Source of the DNA: Gymnorhina tibicen
Taxonomy: Eukaryota; Chordata; Aves; Passeriformes; Artamidae
Reading direction: 5' to 3'
Assembly: GCA_013399875.1 (NCBI GenBank)
Contig: VXAZ01000446.1
Location: forward strand, 124,001-188,000
Length of the DNA: 64,000 nt
Below, piece by piece: positions 6,519-42,284 of the stretch. Positions within the stretch are counted from its first letter, which is position 1. Every line of letters begins with the position of its first letter. Made by a program: the position numbers and the translations under genes. The notes beneath the pieces were generated by a model that made no database searches, had not been told where the DNA came from, and saw nothing but the letters and a program-made list of their open reading frames with translations.

Positions 6519-9500
6519 TCAGGGCAAACATATTGACACATGGTAGGACTTTGCTTGTTTTTAATCACTATACCAATTCTATTTTTGTTTACAAAACACC
6601 ATGCACACGTGAGGAGTCGTGTGGACAAGGAAACACAACATGCACTTTGATGGCAAATGCAAATCTGCAATGGCAAAATGAGGACACAGGTATCTGCAGT
6701 TTCCGGCAAGAGCTCTGCCTATGCTGACTTTGGCTCCATCCACATCAACTCATGGGCTCGTGCATTTAGGAGAGAAGAAGCCAATGAAAAATTCCCAAAC
6801 TAAGAACACAGTGCGCCTTCTTGAGTATGGAGGAAGTGAGAGCGAACTTCACAGGCAAGATTTGGAGATCACCTGCATAGGCAATGGAGAAATCAGGTTC
6901 CCTCCGAAGAAAAACTCAAAGCAGTACCTTAAATTAGGCATTTTCACAGCATACCAACAACTTACCAATATGAACACACTCAGAGCGTTTAATATCCTTC
7001 CAACAATGGCTGGACAGTTGCTGAAAAGATGGGTAAAAAGACAGCATGACAACTGCAGAGTATAGATGGTGCTGAAACCACTGCCTGGCAAGGCCAGGAA
7101 ACAGATTAACTGTTGCCAAGATCATGGAAATGTCACTGCTATGCTCTAAAAGCCTCCCTCAGTTACATCTGAATGATGATGAAAGGTATATTATGGCCTA
7201 TTAATAAAAATGTACCACACAGCTACTGAAAATTTCAAAGAGTTTCCCTCAGAAATACTAAATTGTTTTATCCAACCCTTTATTCTTCTTTTTACAACCT
7301 TTCATGAAGCAGTGCCATCTCACCCAGTTTGGTGCATGAAGGTGTGTCTACATTACCTCTGAGAAAGCCTCATACTCCCACATCCAGTATTTAAAGAACC
7401 ACTACCAGGGTAAACACATTAACACAAAGGCCTATCGCAGTTCACAGACTTTATGATGGAAACTCTAAGCTTGCAAATAAAGGAAGGGGAATGTTGTCTG
7501 GCTGAGAAATGGGTTATGGTGTTTGGGGAACATGAGTCCAGTACCACCTACTTCTCCTCCAGGGAGTCTGGCCTTAGAACACGTTGCCCTTCTAACCCCA
7601 GTGGTTACTCTGTGATTTTGAGTGTAGAGCTTAAAGAACATGGCATATCCACCCCAAACAATGCTCCTCTTTGTTTACATGTCTTTCTACATTGCTGATG
7701 CAAGAAACTCTTTCATAGGCATTATGAAAAACATGGGCCACCAAAAGCCTTCTGTGGAGTTTGTACTGGCTAATGCTCTTGAGCAGAGGAATTTTTTAAA
7801 TTCATTTTTATGCTGTATGAACAGTCATATAATTTTTAACAAACACCACCAAACCACAGGCTGACTTAACAGGCAGGAGAACTCTCAGCTTTAAAGTGCA
7901 TATTAATAACTAGCATAACATTTGTCAAAGTAAGTAATTAGAGTTTTATAGTACTGTGTACTCTAAAAGTAGTCCAAATAATATTTACATGATAGACCAT
8001 AATAAAGAAACTGTTCTAAAGGGGACACAAGTAATGAAGAAAATAAAATGAAGTTTGCAGCCCTTCTATTGTTAAAGAGCACAAGGGGGATTCAAAATGG
8101 ATCTTTATGATTCATCATGTGAACTCTCACTGACTTTAAAAGAATGTCCTAATTTTTAGTAGGGAATTGAAAAAAAGGAAATAATTTTCAATGACTTCAC
8201 CAAACAAGCATTTTACTTGTTAATGTGAAATATGCTATATTATACCTGAGTTTTCAGAAGGTACCACCTAAACATACTATCAAGCAAGCTTAAAAAGGAA
8301 GCGTGAAAGGGCTAGTACAATGTGCAATAAAAGAACATATTTAAATGCTAAACAAATCAGTGAAATACAGAAAAAGCTGTATTTTCCACTCAAATAGTGA
8401 TCAGTTACCTTGACTCCCAAATCCACTACCCTTGCATCAAATCCTGTCCGTACCAAACATCCCAGCCTTGGATGCAGTCACATACCCAGCAGCTTCTCCT
8501 CTCTCTGCTGCTGAGCTAAGCCCCAAAGTCAACAACCCTGTGGTTTATTTGCTCCAGGACCAGATGCCAAGTCTCTGCAGCGACAGCTCCCTGTTATCAC
8601 TTCACCACTGCTTTCAACCACACGTGGATTACTTCCTAAGCCCAGTTTTCAGGGTGCCACCCCATCATGGGGATTATTTTCACTTGTGTTTGTTGGGTTG
8701 ACTTTGCTTTTTCTCTCTGTTCTGCTAATATCAGTTCTCCTGCCTCAGTTCTCTGCTTATTTTCATGCTTGCAGAGCCTTACCTTTAATACTCTGATGAA
8801 TTCCATTAAGCTGTTTATCTTTCTGCTGGGCCATTGCTGGGGTTGTTCAACACAGATCCCTGCAAGGTGGCACTGACCAAAGCTGCTGCTGAAGTCACAA
8901 AACCTTCTCCCATTTTGTTTTTTTTAATGCAAACCTTTTTTGCATATGCACCCAACAAACTGTTTGGCTTCACAGGCAGCTGGGCGCACAAATCTCATTT
9001 TCCCTAGCGGCATTAAGGGCTCAATACACTTACTTTTGTTACATTACTGTCCCACAGCCACCTCCACGACTGCAATTCCTGACATTTGCCCCCCTTAGAC
9101 TACTGCCCACTTAAAACTAATTCTGTGAGCAATTCTGATGAAAAGACAAAAAATGCACTATCAAAAGCCCCCGTCATGTTAAAGTAATTTTTAAGAGCAT
9201 GGAGGACTGAAAAGGCTCAGAAAAGCTAAAGTCAAGCAAGGAGAGGTAGTTCCCTGTCAGTCCTGCCTGTCCAGCATAATTAATGGACAACCAAAAGTCA
9301 ATCCTAGCTCACATTTCTTACTGCTCCACCACTAACCCACCAACAGGAAACTCCTGATACAGCCACTGCTTTCCTTTACACACTGGAAATCTACTCAAGA
9401 GGATGGAAAAAATCTCTGCTAGGTGTTTCTGGGTATTCATGCTTTTCGAAACAGGCTTAGCAGTCCAAGAAACATGGCCCTGAATCATAATTCAACCTCA

Positions 9501-22137: not shown

Positions 22138-23545
22138 GCAGCACAATTTCACAAATCTAATATAGAGGTATGAAATTTCCTTCTTTGCCTTGAAAGAATA
22201 CATACTGACATTTAAACACAGTGCAGTAATTTTCCTAAAATAAATTCAGCAAGGTTGAAACAAACAAAAAAATATCCATCAGATCCAAAGGAAACAGAAA
22301 AAATTTGAGGGCCTTCCTCCTCAGACTGAATGGAGCAGGAGTAAAACAGCTGAACAGAGTAAAACAATTGCTTTCATTTCTGTAGTTTGGTAAGGTCCTT
22401 AAACTTTAGGAAATAATAAGAATACATTTTTTGTATTTGTGATTTGAGTAAAGTTGATGAAACTGGGACCTTTAAAAGTCAGGCAGCTGTTTGGATGAGT
22501 CCATCTGAAAATGAGGCCCCACAGAAGTATCTCAAACTGGATATTCCAGATCAGAAAGATTAAAACAAAATATTGAAATATTGAAAAATTCATCTTCTGT
22601 TGCTTATTCATTGGCTAATGAATTAAGTCAGAACTTATATTGATTTAATACACAAATGTACCATTTGATAGCATTTGTAGTGCACTGTTTTTCAAGTCCA
22701 AATATGCTCTCCCTCATAACCTAGAAATAGGAATATTCACATTACGTACACAATTAGGAAGGAAAGGCAACCTTAAAACCTTTTGAAAAAGACAAGGAAA
22801 AACCTCAGATTGAAATCCTTAATGAGGTGGGTTTGATTGAAATTATGCATTTTTCATCTAGTCTTAGCTCAGGAGAGTAATCCCAAAGCCTAGAAGTCAT
22901 ATTAACCAGTTTGAATTTAAAAATGAACAAACCTCAATGGCAATGTAGGGCTTTCATGAAAAAGAATGCAGAGTAAAGCCTCCGTTAATTTGTTTTAATT
23001 GTCATTACTAAAAAATAAAATGCTGAAAGATTACAATTTTTCTTTTACATAGAAAATGAAAAAATCAAATAATAATGTTATGTGAATTAAGGAAGAAATT
23101 TGGTTTTGCTAAAATAGTTACTTTTTCAAGAGAAGGTGTATGGAAGAAAGAGGTTCATTTGCTTTTAAATTCTGTCTTAAACAAAAACCAAAGAAACCCT
23201 AATAAAGAGAAAACAAGTGGATTCCAATTTTACCAGAATTTTCACCATCTAACAAAATTTAATCTGGAAACATGCATGTCTACAGGAAATTTCAGAATTT
23301 AATCCTTATTGATTTAAAAAAAACCCAACCAATAAAAAAAGGCATTTTCTAATCAGCCTAAATGAGCAGAATATTTAACTGGCTTTCAAACAGAAAAGCA
23401 AATTTGGATGTAGAGAGGCAGATCTCACTTAAGGACAAGTTGTATTCTCCCCATAATGTGTGTTTCTGGACAAACTGGGTAGTATGACATTCCTGTGGCA
23501 GGCAGGGCAAGCCCCTGGGCACGAAGGATGGGGTGGGGATGTTAC

Positions 23546-23620
23546 CTAGCGTGCTGTGGCAAAGTGGACTGCCGTGTCCATGGATAGTAAATGCAGTCAT
23601 GACTAGCGGGGCCTCTACAC
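23546..23620 (-). CDS. ERBB4: ERBB4 exon 16, alternative juxtamembrane exon JM-a
   Basis: This 75-bp exon encodes [15 protein letters not shown] followed by RQSTLPQHA and a split Arg. It is the juxtamembrane segment that makes ERBB4 sheddable: ADAM17 cuts close to the membrane and gamma-secretase then frees the intracellular domain. The acceptor is attgcctgcag with a poor pyrimidine tract, and the donor is gtaacat. Both Cys residues that pair with domain IV are kept. The tract WTGHSTLP of human (from memory) is WTRQSTLP here, so the residue on the amino side of the reported cut is Gln rather than His and the one before it Arg rather than Gly. Confidence 0.96.
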
Positions 23621-23738
23621 CTGCAGGCAATTACAGAACAAACCACGTCATTGCCACTCCCCAGGACATGCACACGCATGCGCCCTTGTCCACACGTGCG
23701 GGATGGAGACACACAGGCAGCCAGCACCCAGCCAGTAC
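23621..23738 (-). other. ERBB4: 118-bp intron between the alternative JM-b and JM-a exons
   Basis: This is the shortest intron in the window by an order of magnitude. It is GC- and CpG-richer than the flanking introns. It carries two GCATG cores on the transcribed strand and ends in a weak, purine-interrupted pyrimidine tract before tgcctgcag. A possible branch site, caatgac, lies roughly 30 nt before JM-a. At 118 bp it is long enough to be spliced, so inclusion of both exons is physically possible. Confidence 0.85.
23667..23681 (-). promoter_or_regulatory. Paired GCAUG elements (candidate RBFOX sites) between JM-b and JM-a
   Basis: On the transcribed strand this stretch reads GCATG at 23681-23677 and again at 23671-23667. 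The second is part of a full TGCATG at 23672-23667. The two cores are spaced 10 nt apart. They start about 57 nt after the JM-b donor and end about 46 nt before JM-a. RBFOX proteins bind (U)GCAUG, promote an exon that lies upstream of the motif and repress one that lies downstream. This position would favour JM-b over JM-a where RBFOX is abundant (heart, muscle, neurons). The motifs are seen directly; the function is inferred. Confidence 0.5.
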
Positions 23739-23783
23739 CTATCCATCAGCCCAATGCAGTCCTCCAGGTGTGGCCCTATGCAC
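23739..23783 (-). CDS. ERBB4: ERBB4 alternative juxtamembrane exon JM-b
   Basis: This 45-bp exon encodes [14 protein letters not shown] plus a split Arg. It replaces the JM-a segment between domain IV and the membrane. The JM-b form lacks the site cut by ADAM17, so in mammals it is not shed and is favoured in heart and some neural tissue. The match is to human [14 protein letters not shown] as I recall it, with SSI changed to PHL. Splice sites are intact: acceptor tttgctgcag behind a 23-nt unbroken pyrimidine run, and a rather weak donor gtactg. It starts and ends in the same phase as JM-a and lies 118 bp before it in the transcript. I number exons by the JM-a transcript; some papers call this exon 15. 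Confidence 0.93.
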
Positions 23784-29282
<5,499 letters not shown>

Positions 29283-31438: not shown

Positions 31439-31571
31439 CCATCATAGAGGTTGCAGGAGTCTATGCAGGTCCTCCCCCTGATGAAGCGCTTGCAGGACAG
31501 GCACTGGTCTGGCCCTGGCCCCCAGCAGCCATCACTGGAGCACAGCTCATTGCACACCATGCCATCAGCAG
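31439..31571 (-). CDS. ERBB4: ERBB4 exon 13 (start of cysteine-rich domain IV)
   Basis: This 133-bp exon completes a Thr and reads [20 protein letters not shown], then [19 protein letters not shown] and NLYDG, with the last Gly split. It opens the second furin-like cysteine-rich domain (domain IV), recognisable from [11 protein letters not shown]. The acceptor is tctctgcag and the donor is gtaagaca. Every Cys of the module is kept. Differences from human as recalled are Glu for His after CN and several changes in [11 protein letters not shown]. Confidence 0.97.
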
Positions 31572-40895: not shown

Positions 40896-40986
40896 CTATA
40901 GAGAGCTCTCCCACCGATGGTAACCAAGTTAGAAAACACCCTGAAGTCTGTCATATTCTCAGGCCATGACTGTATGTTCAAATACC
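40896..40986 (-). CDS. ERBB4: ERBB4 exon 11 (domain III)
   Basis: This 91-bp exon reads [18 protein letters not shown] then [13 protein letters not shown], with split Gly and Ser codons at its ends. It contributes beta-helix turns to domain III, and Asn-Met-Thr is a potential N-glycosylation site. The acceptor is tccttcag and the donor is gtaaagta. The exon is short and was found by translating around the conserved L-N-I-Q-S-W-P segment. Differences from recalled human include Tyr for Phe, Glu for Pro before NMT, and Arg for Ser before VF. Confidence 0.95.
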
Positions 40987-42210: not shown

Positions 42211-42284
42211 CTGTTATCTCTCTCACTGTTTGGAAGATATTTAATTTTTCTGGATTGATGGCAGCGATCGTGTGATACGGGTCT
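42211..42284 (-). CDS. ERBB4: ERBB4 exon 10 (domain III)
   Basis: This 74-bp exon completes a Gly codon and reads [20 protein letters not shown] then REITG with the last Gly split. It is part of the domain III beta-helix. The acceptor is aacctttcag and the donor is gtaacatg. The exon is too short to appear as an open frame of its own and was found from the REIT motif and splice sites. It is more diverged than its neighbours: human as I recall has NAIEAID and VFRTV in the matching places. Confidence 0.95.

What the first reader, a model, noticed from the sequence alone, without database searches (positions are those of the whole stretch)
23667..23681. Two GCAUG elements placed to act as an RBFOX switch between JM-b and JM-a
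The transcribed strand of the 118-bp spacer has GCATG twice, 10 nt apart, once as full TGCATG. RBFOX proteins enhance an exon upstream of their site and repress one downstream. A single bound site here would do both: raise JM-b and lower JM-a. That agrees with JM-b being the heart/neural form in mammals, where RBFOX proteins are abundant. A third TGCATG on this strand lies at 23271-23276, about 270 nt after JM-a.
Basis: partly seen in the sequence, partly recalled or inferred. Interest (0 to 1): 0.75.

Follow-up and report, generated by a model that had tools for sequence, protein, structure and literature searches.

The report
Candidate RBFOX sites between ERBB4 exons
A bird-sized genome carries two copies of a known splicing-factor motif in the short gap between two alternative exons of the growth-factor receptor gene ERBB4, which makes a sensible but unproven switch of an already known type.

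Summary
The sequence facts are right. The window holds ERBB4 on the minus strand. The JM-b exon (45 nt, 23739-23783) and the JM-a exon (75 nt, 23546-23620) are separated by 118 nt that contain GCATG at 23677-23681 and TGCATG at 23667-23672. Two such motifs are unusual against the whole window (0.6% of sense 118-nt stretches) but not against the spacer's own composition (P 0.127). Both lie inside the window's longest alternating purine-pyrimidine run, so chance is a live rival.

The architecture does fit a known class. JM-b is of micro-exon size, has a weak 5' splice site, a PTB-type pyrimidine tract upstream and GCAUG downstream. The inter-exon position matches FGFR2 IIIb/IIIc, where Fox2 acts through UGCAUG.

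A FOX2 effect on ErbB4 JM splicing in mouse lung cells is already in print; I saw it only as one sentence of a review, without a direction. Conservation, CLIP and knock-down could not be tested here. A third TGCATG after JM-a would by the same rule favour JM-a, so the net direction is open.

Verdict: plausible, ordinary in kind, not demonstrated.

The parts
23739..23783 (-). ERBB4 JM-b exon, 45 nt, reads (x)[14 protein letters not shown](R)
   Evidence: AG/GT borders and frame; joined to the upstream and TM exons it gives an open frame
23621..23738 (-). 118-nt intron between JM-b and JM-a; GC 0.59
   Evidence: the block of both exons and spacer has one match, itself, in the 1.02-Gb own genome (that search skips simple repeats)
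23677..23681 (-). GCATG, first candidate RBFOX motif (intron +58)
23667..23672 (-). TGCATG, second candidate RBFOX motif (GCATG starts at intron +68)
23666..23683 (-). 18-nt alternating purine-pyrimidine run GCGCATGCGTGTGCATGT holding both motifs and a GTGTG between them; the longest such run in the window. Folded alone, its two GCAUGs pair with each other (-6.9 kcal/mol, z -0.52)
23664..23692 (-). predicted RNA hairpin in which each GCAUG is partly paired, not with the other, -12.5 kcal/mol (z -2.63, chosen after the fact); lost in the 238-nt and 538-nt folds
23546..23620 (-). ERBB4 JM-a exon, 75 nt; 20 of 24 residues identical to human erbB-4 in PDB 3u9u
23784..23883 (-). last 100 nt before JM-b: 23-nt unbroken pyrimidine run, 7 TCTT/CTCT words, candidate PTB tract
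   Evidence: 9 such words in the last 118 nt
23271..23276 (-). third TGCATG, 270 nt downstream of JM-a; by the positional rule it would favour JM-a

Best explanation
JM-b is a regulated micro-exon of ERBB4. Shown by sequence: the exon is 45 nt, has a weak 5' splice site, is preceded by a CU-rich tract and is followed at +58 and +68 by GCAUG motifs in a 118-nt intron shared with JM-a. Inferred: in cells with much PTBP1 and little RBFOX the upstream tract is occupied and JM-b is skipped, giving JM-a. Where PTBP1 is low and RBFOX high (heart, neurons), RBFOX bound in the spacer helps U1 use the weak JM-b 5' splice site and hinders recognition of the JM-a branch point and 3' splice site just downstream, giving JM-b.
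For: Gene and exons confirmed. Motifs at the right place. JM-b 5' splice site TAG|GTACTG scores second lowest and JM-a third lowest of the 16 exons placed (matrix recalled). CU-rich tract: 9 TCTT/CTCT words in the last 118 nt before JM-b, P 0.002 against all stretches, 0.004 GC-matched, 0.0345 against shuffles. Of the other 30 118-nt intronic flanks of the 16 exons, 29 hold no GCATG and one holds one. Micro-exons (51 nt or less) as a class carry RBFOX binding mostly downstream and PTBP1 binding upstream; [quoted passage not shown] FGFR2 precedent for UGCAUG switching two neighbouring exons (PMC2880598, passages). FOX2 is reported to regulate ErbB4 Jma production in mouse alveolar type II cells (PMC10835012, passages).
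Against: GCATG count is not significant against the spacer's own dinucleotides, P 0.127. The RBFOX-like set including recalled secondary motifs reaches only P 0.040 against shuffles and was chosen after the fact. In every fold tried (18, 29, 118, 238 and 538 nt) both GCAUGs are wholly or partly paired; computed accessibility is ordinary among the 59 sense GCATGs. A third TGCATG would favour JM-a. The TM exon, which I take as constitutive, also has two TGCATG within 300 nt upstream. Micro-exons enhanced by RBFOX tend to have long flanking introns, unlike this 118-nt one. The exon labelled e5 has as many TCTT/CTCT words in its last 100 nt as JM-b. JM-a and JM-b were similar in human non-neoplastic brain. 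No orthologue, CLIP or RNA data could be examined.
Confidence: 0.45

Rival explanations
1. The two GCATGs are chance products of a GC-rich, TG-rich alternating purine-pyrimidine tract, and JM choice is set by other factors: PTBP1 on the tract before JM-b, GU-binding CELF proteins, TIA/Hu proteins or SLM2.
For: P 0.127 against shuffles of the spacer. Both motifs lie in the longest alternating run of the window. CU-rich tract before JM-b. The same review sentence that names FOX2 names TIAR and HUB. SLM2 CLIP lists Erbb4 among its bound mRNAs (PMC10066595, passages; exon not stated in what I saw).
Against: GC-matched P is 0.038, and FOX2 is reported to affect ErbB4 JM splicing in mouse. SLM2-, ELAVL- and TIA-type words are absent from the spacer, and TIA- and ELAVL-type words from the two outer 118-nt flanks too.
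Confidence: 0.38
2. RBFOX does act on this locus, but its net effect is neutral or favours JM-a, because the TGCATG 270 nt after JM-a enhances JM-a against the spacer sites.
For: Third motif present. Four recalled secondary RBFOX words in the first 118 nt after JM-a (P 0.030 GC-matched). The review words it as FOX2, TIAR and HUB regulating production of Jma in alveolar type II cells, without a direction.
Against: The spacer sites are closer to both exons; JM-b is the sole form in mouse heart, a tissue named as RBFOX-expressing.
Confidence: 0.12
3. The two motifs act as a structural pair: they base-pair with each other in a hairpin, so RBFOX can bind only when the hairpin opens, giving a threshold-like switch or no binding at all.
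For: In the 18-nt element alone the two GCAUGs pair with each other, -6.9 kcal/mol. A 29-nt hairpin over the same place has -12.5 kcal/mol, 1 of 200 shuffles as stable.
Against: The mutual pairing has z -0.52 (57 of 200 shuffles as stable) and is not kept in the 29-, 118-, 238- or 538-nt folds, where the motifs pair elsewhere. The 29-nt hairpin was picked after inspection; the full spacer folds less well than its shuffles, z +1.72. Accessibility is ordinary.
Confidence: 0.05

Closest known systems
FGFR2 IIIb/IIIc switch by Fox2 (UGCAUG in the inter-exon intron)
   Same: Two tandem alternative exons of a receptor kinase; UGCAUG in the intron between them; GU-containing neighbour sequence; gain of the upstream exon at the cost of the downstream one (PMC2880598, passages).
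   Different: FGFR2 also uses ESRP at the ISE/ISS-3 element, and in that paper Fox2 and ESRP disturbed exon 9 recognition while activation of exon 8 was not obvious. Here the intron is only 118 nt and nothing is measured.
RBFOX/PTBP1-regulated micro-exons
   Same: Exon of 51 nt or less, weak splice site, pyrimidine tract upstream, GCAUG downstream (PMC4317164, section 9).
   Different: RBFOX-enhanced micro-exons tend to have long flanking introns; this one has a partner exon 118 nt away. ERBB4 is not named in that paper's main text.
C. elegans egl-15 and unc-32 mutually exclusive exons (FOX-1/ASD-1 with SUP-12 or UNC-75)
   Same: UGCAUG with a second, tissue-restricted RNA-binding protein choosing between neighbouring exons (PMC3585155, passages; PMC2880598).
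   Different: Cofactor here unknown. The likeness of the juxtaposed GCAUG and GUGUG to the egl-15 element is from recall only.
Mouse ErbB4 Jma/Jmb regulation by FOX2, TIAR, HUB (Wiegel, Dammann and Nielsen, Pediatr Res 2022)
   Same: Same gene, same JM choice, FOX2 named (seen only as a review sentence and reference, PMC10835012).
   Different: Paper not held; whether it names these motifs, and in which direction FOX2 acts, I could not see.

Membership tests
RBFOX-regulated alternative exon | (U)GCAUG in a proximal flanking intron | tested here: met
RBFOX-regulated alternative exon | motif enrichment beyond local composition | tested here: inconclusive
   P 0.006 against all stretches, 0.038 GC-matched, 0.127 dinucleotide shuffles
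RBFOX-regulated alternative exon | motif conserved in orthologues | not testable with these tools
   own genome has no relatives held; degenerate pattern for JM-a gave 0 stretches in genome contigs and 0 in viral contigs
RBFOX-regulated alternative exon | RBFOX binding (CLIP) and isoform change on depletion | not testable with these tools
   no CLIP or RNA data held; literature sentence for mouse FOX2 only
RBFOX/PTBP1 micro-exon | alternative exon of 51 nt or less | tested here: met
   45 nt; alternative use known for mammals, not tested in this species
RBFOX/PTBP1 micro-exon | weak splice site | tested here: met
   5' splice site score -1.47, second lowest of 16 (recalled matrix)
RBFOX/PTBP1 micro-exon | PTB-type pyrimidine tract upstream | tested here: met
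   9 TCTT/CTCT in 118 nt; P 0.002 all, 0.004 GC-matched, 0.0345 shuffles; exon e5 ties with it over the last 100 nt
RBFOX/PTBP1 micro-exon | long flanking introns | tested here: not met
   3' intron 118 nt; this is a tendency in PMC4317164, not a requirement
FGFR2-type inter-exon UGCAUG switch | UGCAUG between two tandem alternative exons | tested here: met
FGFR2-type inter-exon UGCAUG switch | mutation of UGCAUG shifts exon choice | not testable with these tools
   needs a minigene
Mutual exclusion by steric short spacing | 5' splice site to branch point too close (about 50-60 nt or less, recalled) | tested here: not met
   branch-like TGAC with A at intron +91 (predicted by motif only), so splicing JM-b to JM-a (JM-d) looks sterically possible and is in frame

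The most novel reading that the evidence does not exclude
The 18-nt element GCGCATGCGTGTGCATGT is a composite: two RBFOX sites around a GUGUG bound by a heart or neural GU-binding partner (RBM24/SUP-12-like or CELF; the pairing with RBM24 is from recall). The two GCAUGs can close on each other in a local hairpin that opens cooperatively, so JM choice flips sharply from cleavable JM-a to non-cleavable JM-b in muscle. It would be a vertebrate counterpart of the worm FOX-1/SUP-12 element.
Probability: 0.04. Interest if true: 0.6.

Novelty: new member of a known kind. Interest (0 to 1): 0.3.

Why it matters
JM-a ERBB4 can be cut by TACE and gamma-secretase and signal in the nucleus; JM-b cannot. 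What sets the ratio in heart and brain is therefore of interest in development, schizophrenia and brain tumours. If the spacer sites work, one short intron would be the control point, testable by antisense or minigene. Since FOX2 is already linked to ErbB4 JM splicing in mouse, the gain here is a concrete candidate site and a combined PTB/RBFOX model, not a new principle.

Tried and rejected
Conservation: the own assembly (1.02 Gb, bird-sized) has no relatives held. A degenerate DNA pattern for the JM-a peptide DCIYYPWT found 0 stretches in genome contigs and 0 in viral contigs, as expected for prokaryote and virus collections. Paralogue or repeat origin of the spacer: the 238-nt block from JM-b to JM-a has one match in the own genome, itself; that search skips simple repeats.

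Steric mutual exclusion: rejected as sole cause, because the branch-like A is at intron +91 and the double-inclusion product is in frame; JM-c and JM-d occur in human brain samples at low level (PMC6116191).

'Only these two exons lack a +5 G': written in my note after 12 exons. It fell when four more were added: exons 10 and 11 also lack it, so 4 of 16. My first guess for the exon 11 donor (score -3.11) was wrong and was dropped after reading the frame; the right donor scores 2.13.

Hairpin: kept only as a weak rival. For that reason I lowered that rival from 0.08 to 0.05 and the novel reading from 0.05 to 0.04, and raised the chance rival from 0.35 to 0.38.

GCATG followed within 5 nt by GTGTG: 3 in the window against 0.77 expected, 5 of 100 shuffles reach 3; in the spacer, either order, P 0.106. 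One of the three lies in exon 13.

Papers, held library only: none has ErbB4, JM-b and Rbfox together, none 'Erbb4 exon', Rbfox1 and splicing, none ErbB4, RBFOX, juxtamembrane and alternative splicing. 39 hold ErbB4, RBFOX, splicing and exon; 30 were listed and I saw passages of six of them. In those passages no RBFOX site in this intron is mentioned; one reports reduced inclusion of an ERBB4 exon in MBNL1-related neuronal reprogramming without saying which exon in what I saw (PMC13333663). Later searches were capped lists of 15 of 153, 10 of 26 and 15 of 291.

Full report
Identity. The window lies in a 1.02-Gb genome of 2,500 contigs, a bird-like size. ERBB4 runs on the minus strand. The exon before the JM pair (27634-27788) matches human erbB-4 best in the PDB (E 3.5e-31; the best EGFR chain 5.2e-17, erbB-3 2e-16, erbB-2 1.5e-11). 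The TM exon matches the erbB-4 TM peptide 2l2t (E 2.3e-17). The first kinase exon matches erbB-4 2r4b as the second-ranked entry, behind one EGFR-labelled entry (60 of 122 matches shown). JM-a (23546-23620) matches 3u9u residues 600-623, 20 of 24 identical. JM-b (23739-23783, 45 nt) reads [14 protein letters not shown] before the split Arg codon; it is too short for the PDB search and is named JM-b by place, frame and recalled likeness. JM-b lies upstream of JM-a, 118 nt apart, and the JM-a, JM-b, double-skip and double-inclusion products are all open.

Observation. All coordinates in the finding hold. Statistically the pair is modest. Window-wide the motifs are at expectation. Two or more in 118 nt occurs in 381 of 63,882 sense stretches (0.6%), 114 of 4,019 of those with GC of at least 0.52 (2.8%), and P is 0.127 under dinucleotide shuffles of the spacer. 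On the sense strand 6 successive pairs lie within 113 nt and this is the tightest (10 nt); the other strand has 13, one at 9 nt. Both motifs sit in GCGCATGCGTGTGCATGT, the longest alternating purine-pyrimidine run of the window (18 nt); 4 of 59 sense GCATGs lie in the 11 runs of 12 nt or more, which make up 147 bases. So a simple source for such motifs is at hand.

Controls on other exons. I placed 16 exons. Of the 30 118-nt intronic flanks other than the spacer, 29 hold no GCATG and one holds one. In 300-nt flanks the TM exon has two TGCATG upstream, which shows that pairs near exons also arise elsewhere. The JM-b donor TAG|GTACTG scores -1.47, second lowest of 16 (lowest: e6, -1.48), and JM-a TAG|GTAACA 1.32, third lowest (recalled matrix). 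Four of 16 donors lack a +5 G: JM-b, JM-a, exon 10 and exon 11.

Other elements. The tract before JM-b has a 23-nt pyrimidine run and 9 TCTT/CTCT words in 118 nt (P 0.002 all, 0.004 GC-matched, 0.0345 shuffled). The exon labelled e5 has as many words in its last 100 nt (7 and 7), so this is suggestive only. The recalled secondary RBFOX words number 6 in the spacer (GC-matched P 0.010, shuffled P 0.126); primary plus secondary, 8, shuffled P 0.040. These sets were chosen after seeing the spacer. CELF-type GU words: 5, P 0.022 all and 0.061 GC-matched. MBNL, NOVA, QKI, SLM2, ELAVL, TIA, hnRNP H, ESRP and hnRNP A words were not enriched in the spacer.

Structure. In the isolated 18-mer the two GCAUGs pair with each other (-6.9 kcal/mol, z -0.52, 57 of 200 shuffles as stable). 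A 29-nt hairpin (23664-23692; -12.5 kcal/mol, z -2.63, 1 of 200) leaves three bases of the first motif and two of the second unpaired, and pairs the rest with bases outside the two motifs; the 118-nt fold keeps it, but the 238- and 538-nt folds pair both motifs elsewhere. The whole spacer folds less well than its shuffles (z +1.72). Computed joint accessibility of the two motifs ranks 12-25 from the lowest of 59 sense GCATGs, depending on flank length. This is not a reason to believe or to dismiss the sites.

Literature. RBFOX2 bound upstream of an exon promotes skipping and bound downstream promotes inclusion (PMC10835012, passage). Micro-exons carry RBFOX binding mostly in their 3' intronic flank and PTBP1 binding at the upstream pyrimidine tract; [quoted passage not shown] ERBB4 is not named in that paper's main text. 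In FGFR2, Fox2 acts through UGCAUG in the intron between two mutually exclusive exons; disruption of UGCAUG halved use of the upstream exon (44.7% to 21.9%), and the binding assays pointed to interference with the downstream exon rather than activation of the upstream one (PMC2880598, passages). In mouse, kidney makes only JM-a, heart only JM-b, cerebellum both (PMC9471956, passage). JM-b is said to predominate in brain, yet JM-a and JM-b were similar in that paper's non-neoplastic brain samples (PMC6116191, passages). FOX2, TIAR and HUB are said to regulate the Jma isoform of ErbB4 in alveolar type II cells (PMC10835012, passage, citing a paper on fetal mouse cells that is not held). The direction is not in the sentence.

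Mechanism. The most likely reading (0.45) is a PTB-off/RBFOX-on micro-exon, in which spacer-bound RBFOX helps the weak JM-b donor and hinders the JM-a acceptor. The acceptor has no pyrimidine run longer than 5 nt in its last 100 nt, and a branch-like TGAC with A at intron +91, 19 nt past the second motif. Shown: anatomy and motif placement. Inferred: binding, direction, tissue effect. The main rival (0.38) is chance motifs in a GU-rich tract with JM choice set by other proteins.

Novelty. Regulation of tandem exons by an inter-exon UGCAUG is a known kind, and an effect of FOX2 on this JM choice is already reported in mouse. The new part would be the specific site in this species and the combined PTB/RBFOX layout. 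Interest 0.3.

Noticed in passing
window 23546-23620: JM-a reads W-T-R-Q-S-T where human (3u9u) and mouse (guide sequence in PMC9568506, translated by hand) have W-T-G-H-S-T: the His of the proposed TACE site (mouse H641-S642) is Gln here. That paper found that an H641N;S642P mutant was still cleaved in vivo.
   Followed up: partly
window 23739-23783: JM-b here has [15 protein letters not shown]; the human form as I recall it is [15 protein letters not shown], so the two Cys and their spacing are kept and three residues differ.
   Followed up: no
window 6600-6644: Two sense TGCATG lie 39 nt apart within 300 nt upstream of the TM exon.
   Followed up: no
window 31553-31562: Exon 13 coding sequence contains GCATGGTGTG on the sense strand, a GCAUG directly followed by GUGUG; probably chance.
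   Followed up: no
window 42211-42284 and 40896-40986: Donors of ERBB4 exons 10 (CAG|GTAACA) and 11 (TAG|GTAAAG) also lack a +5 G.
   Followed up: no
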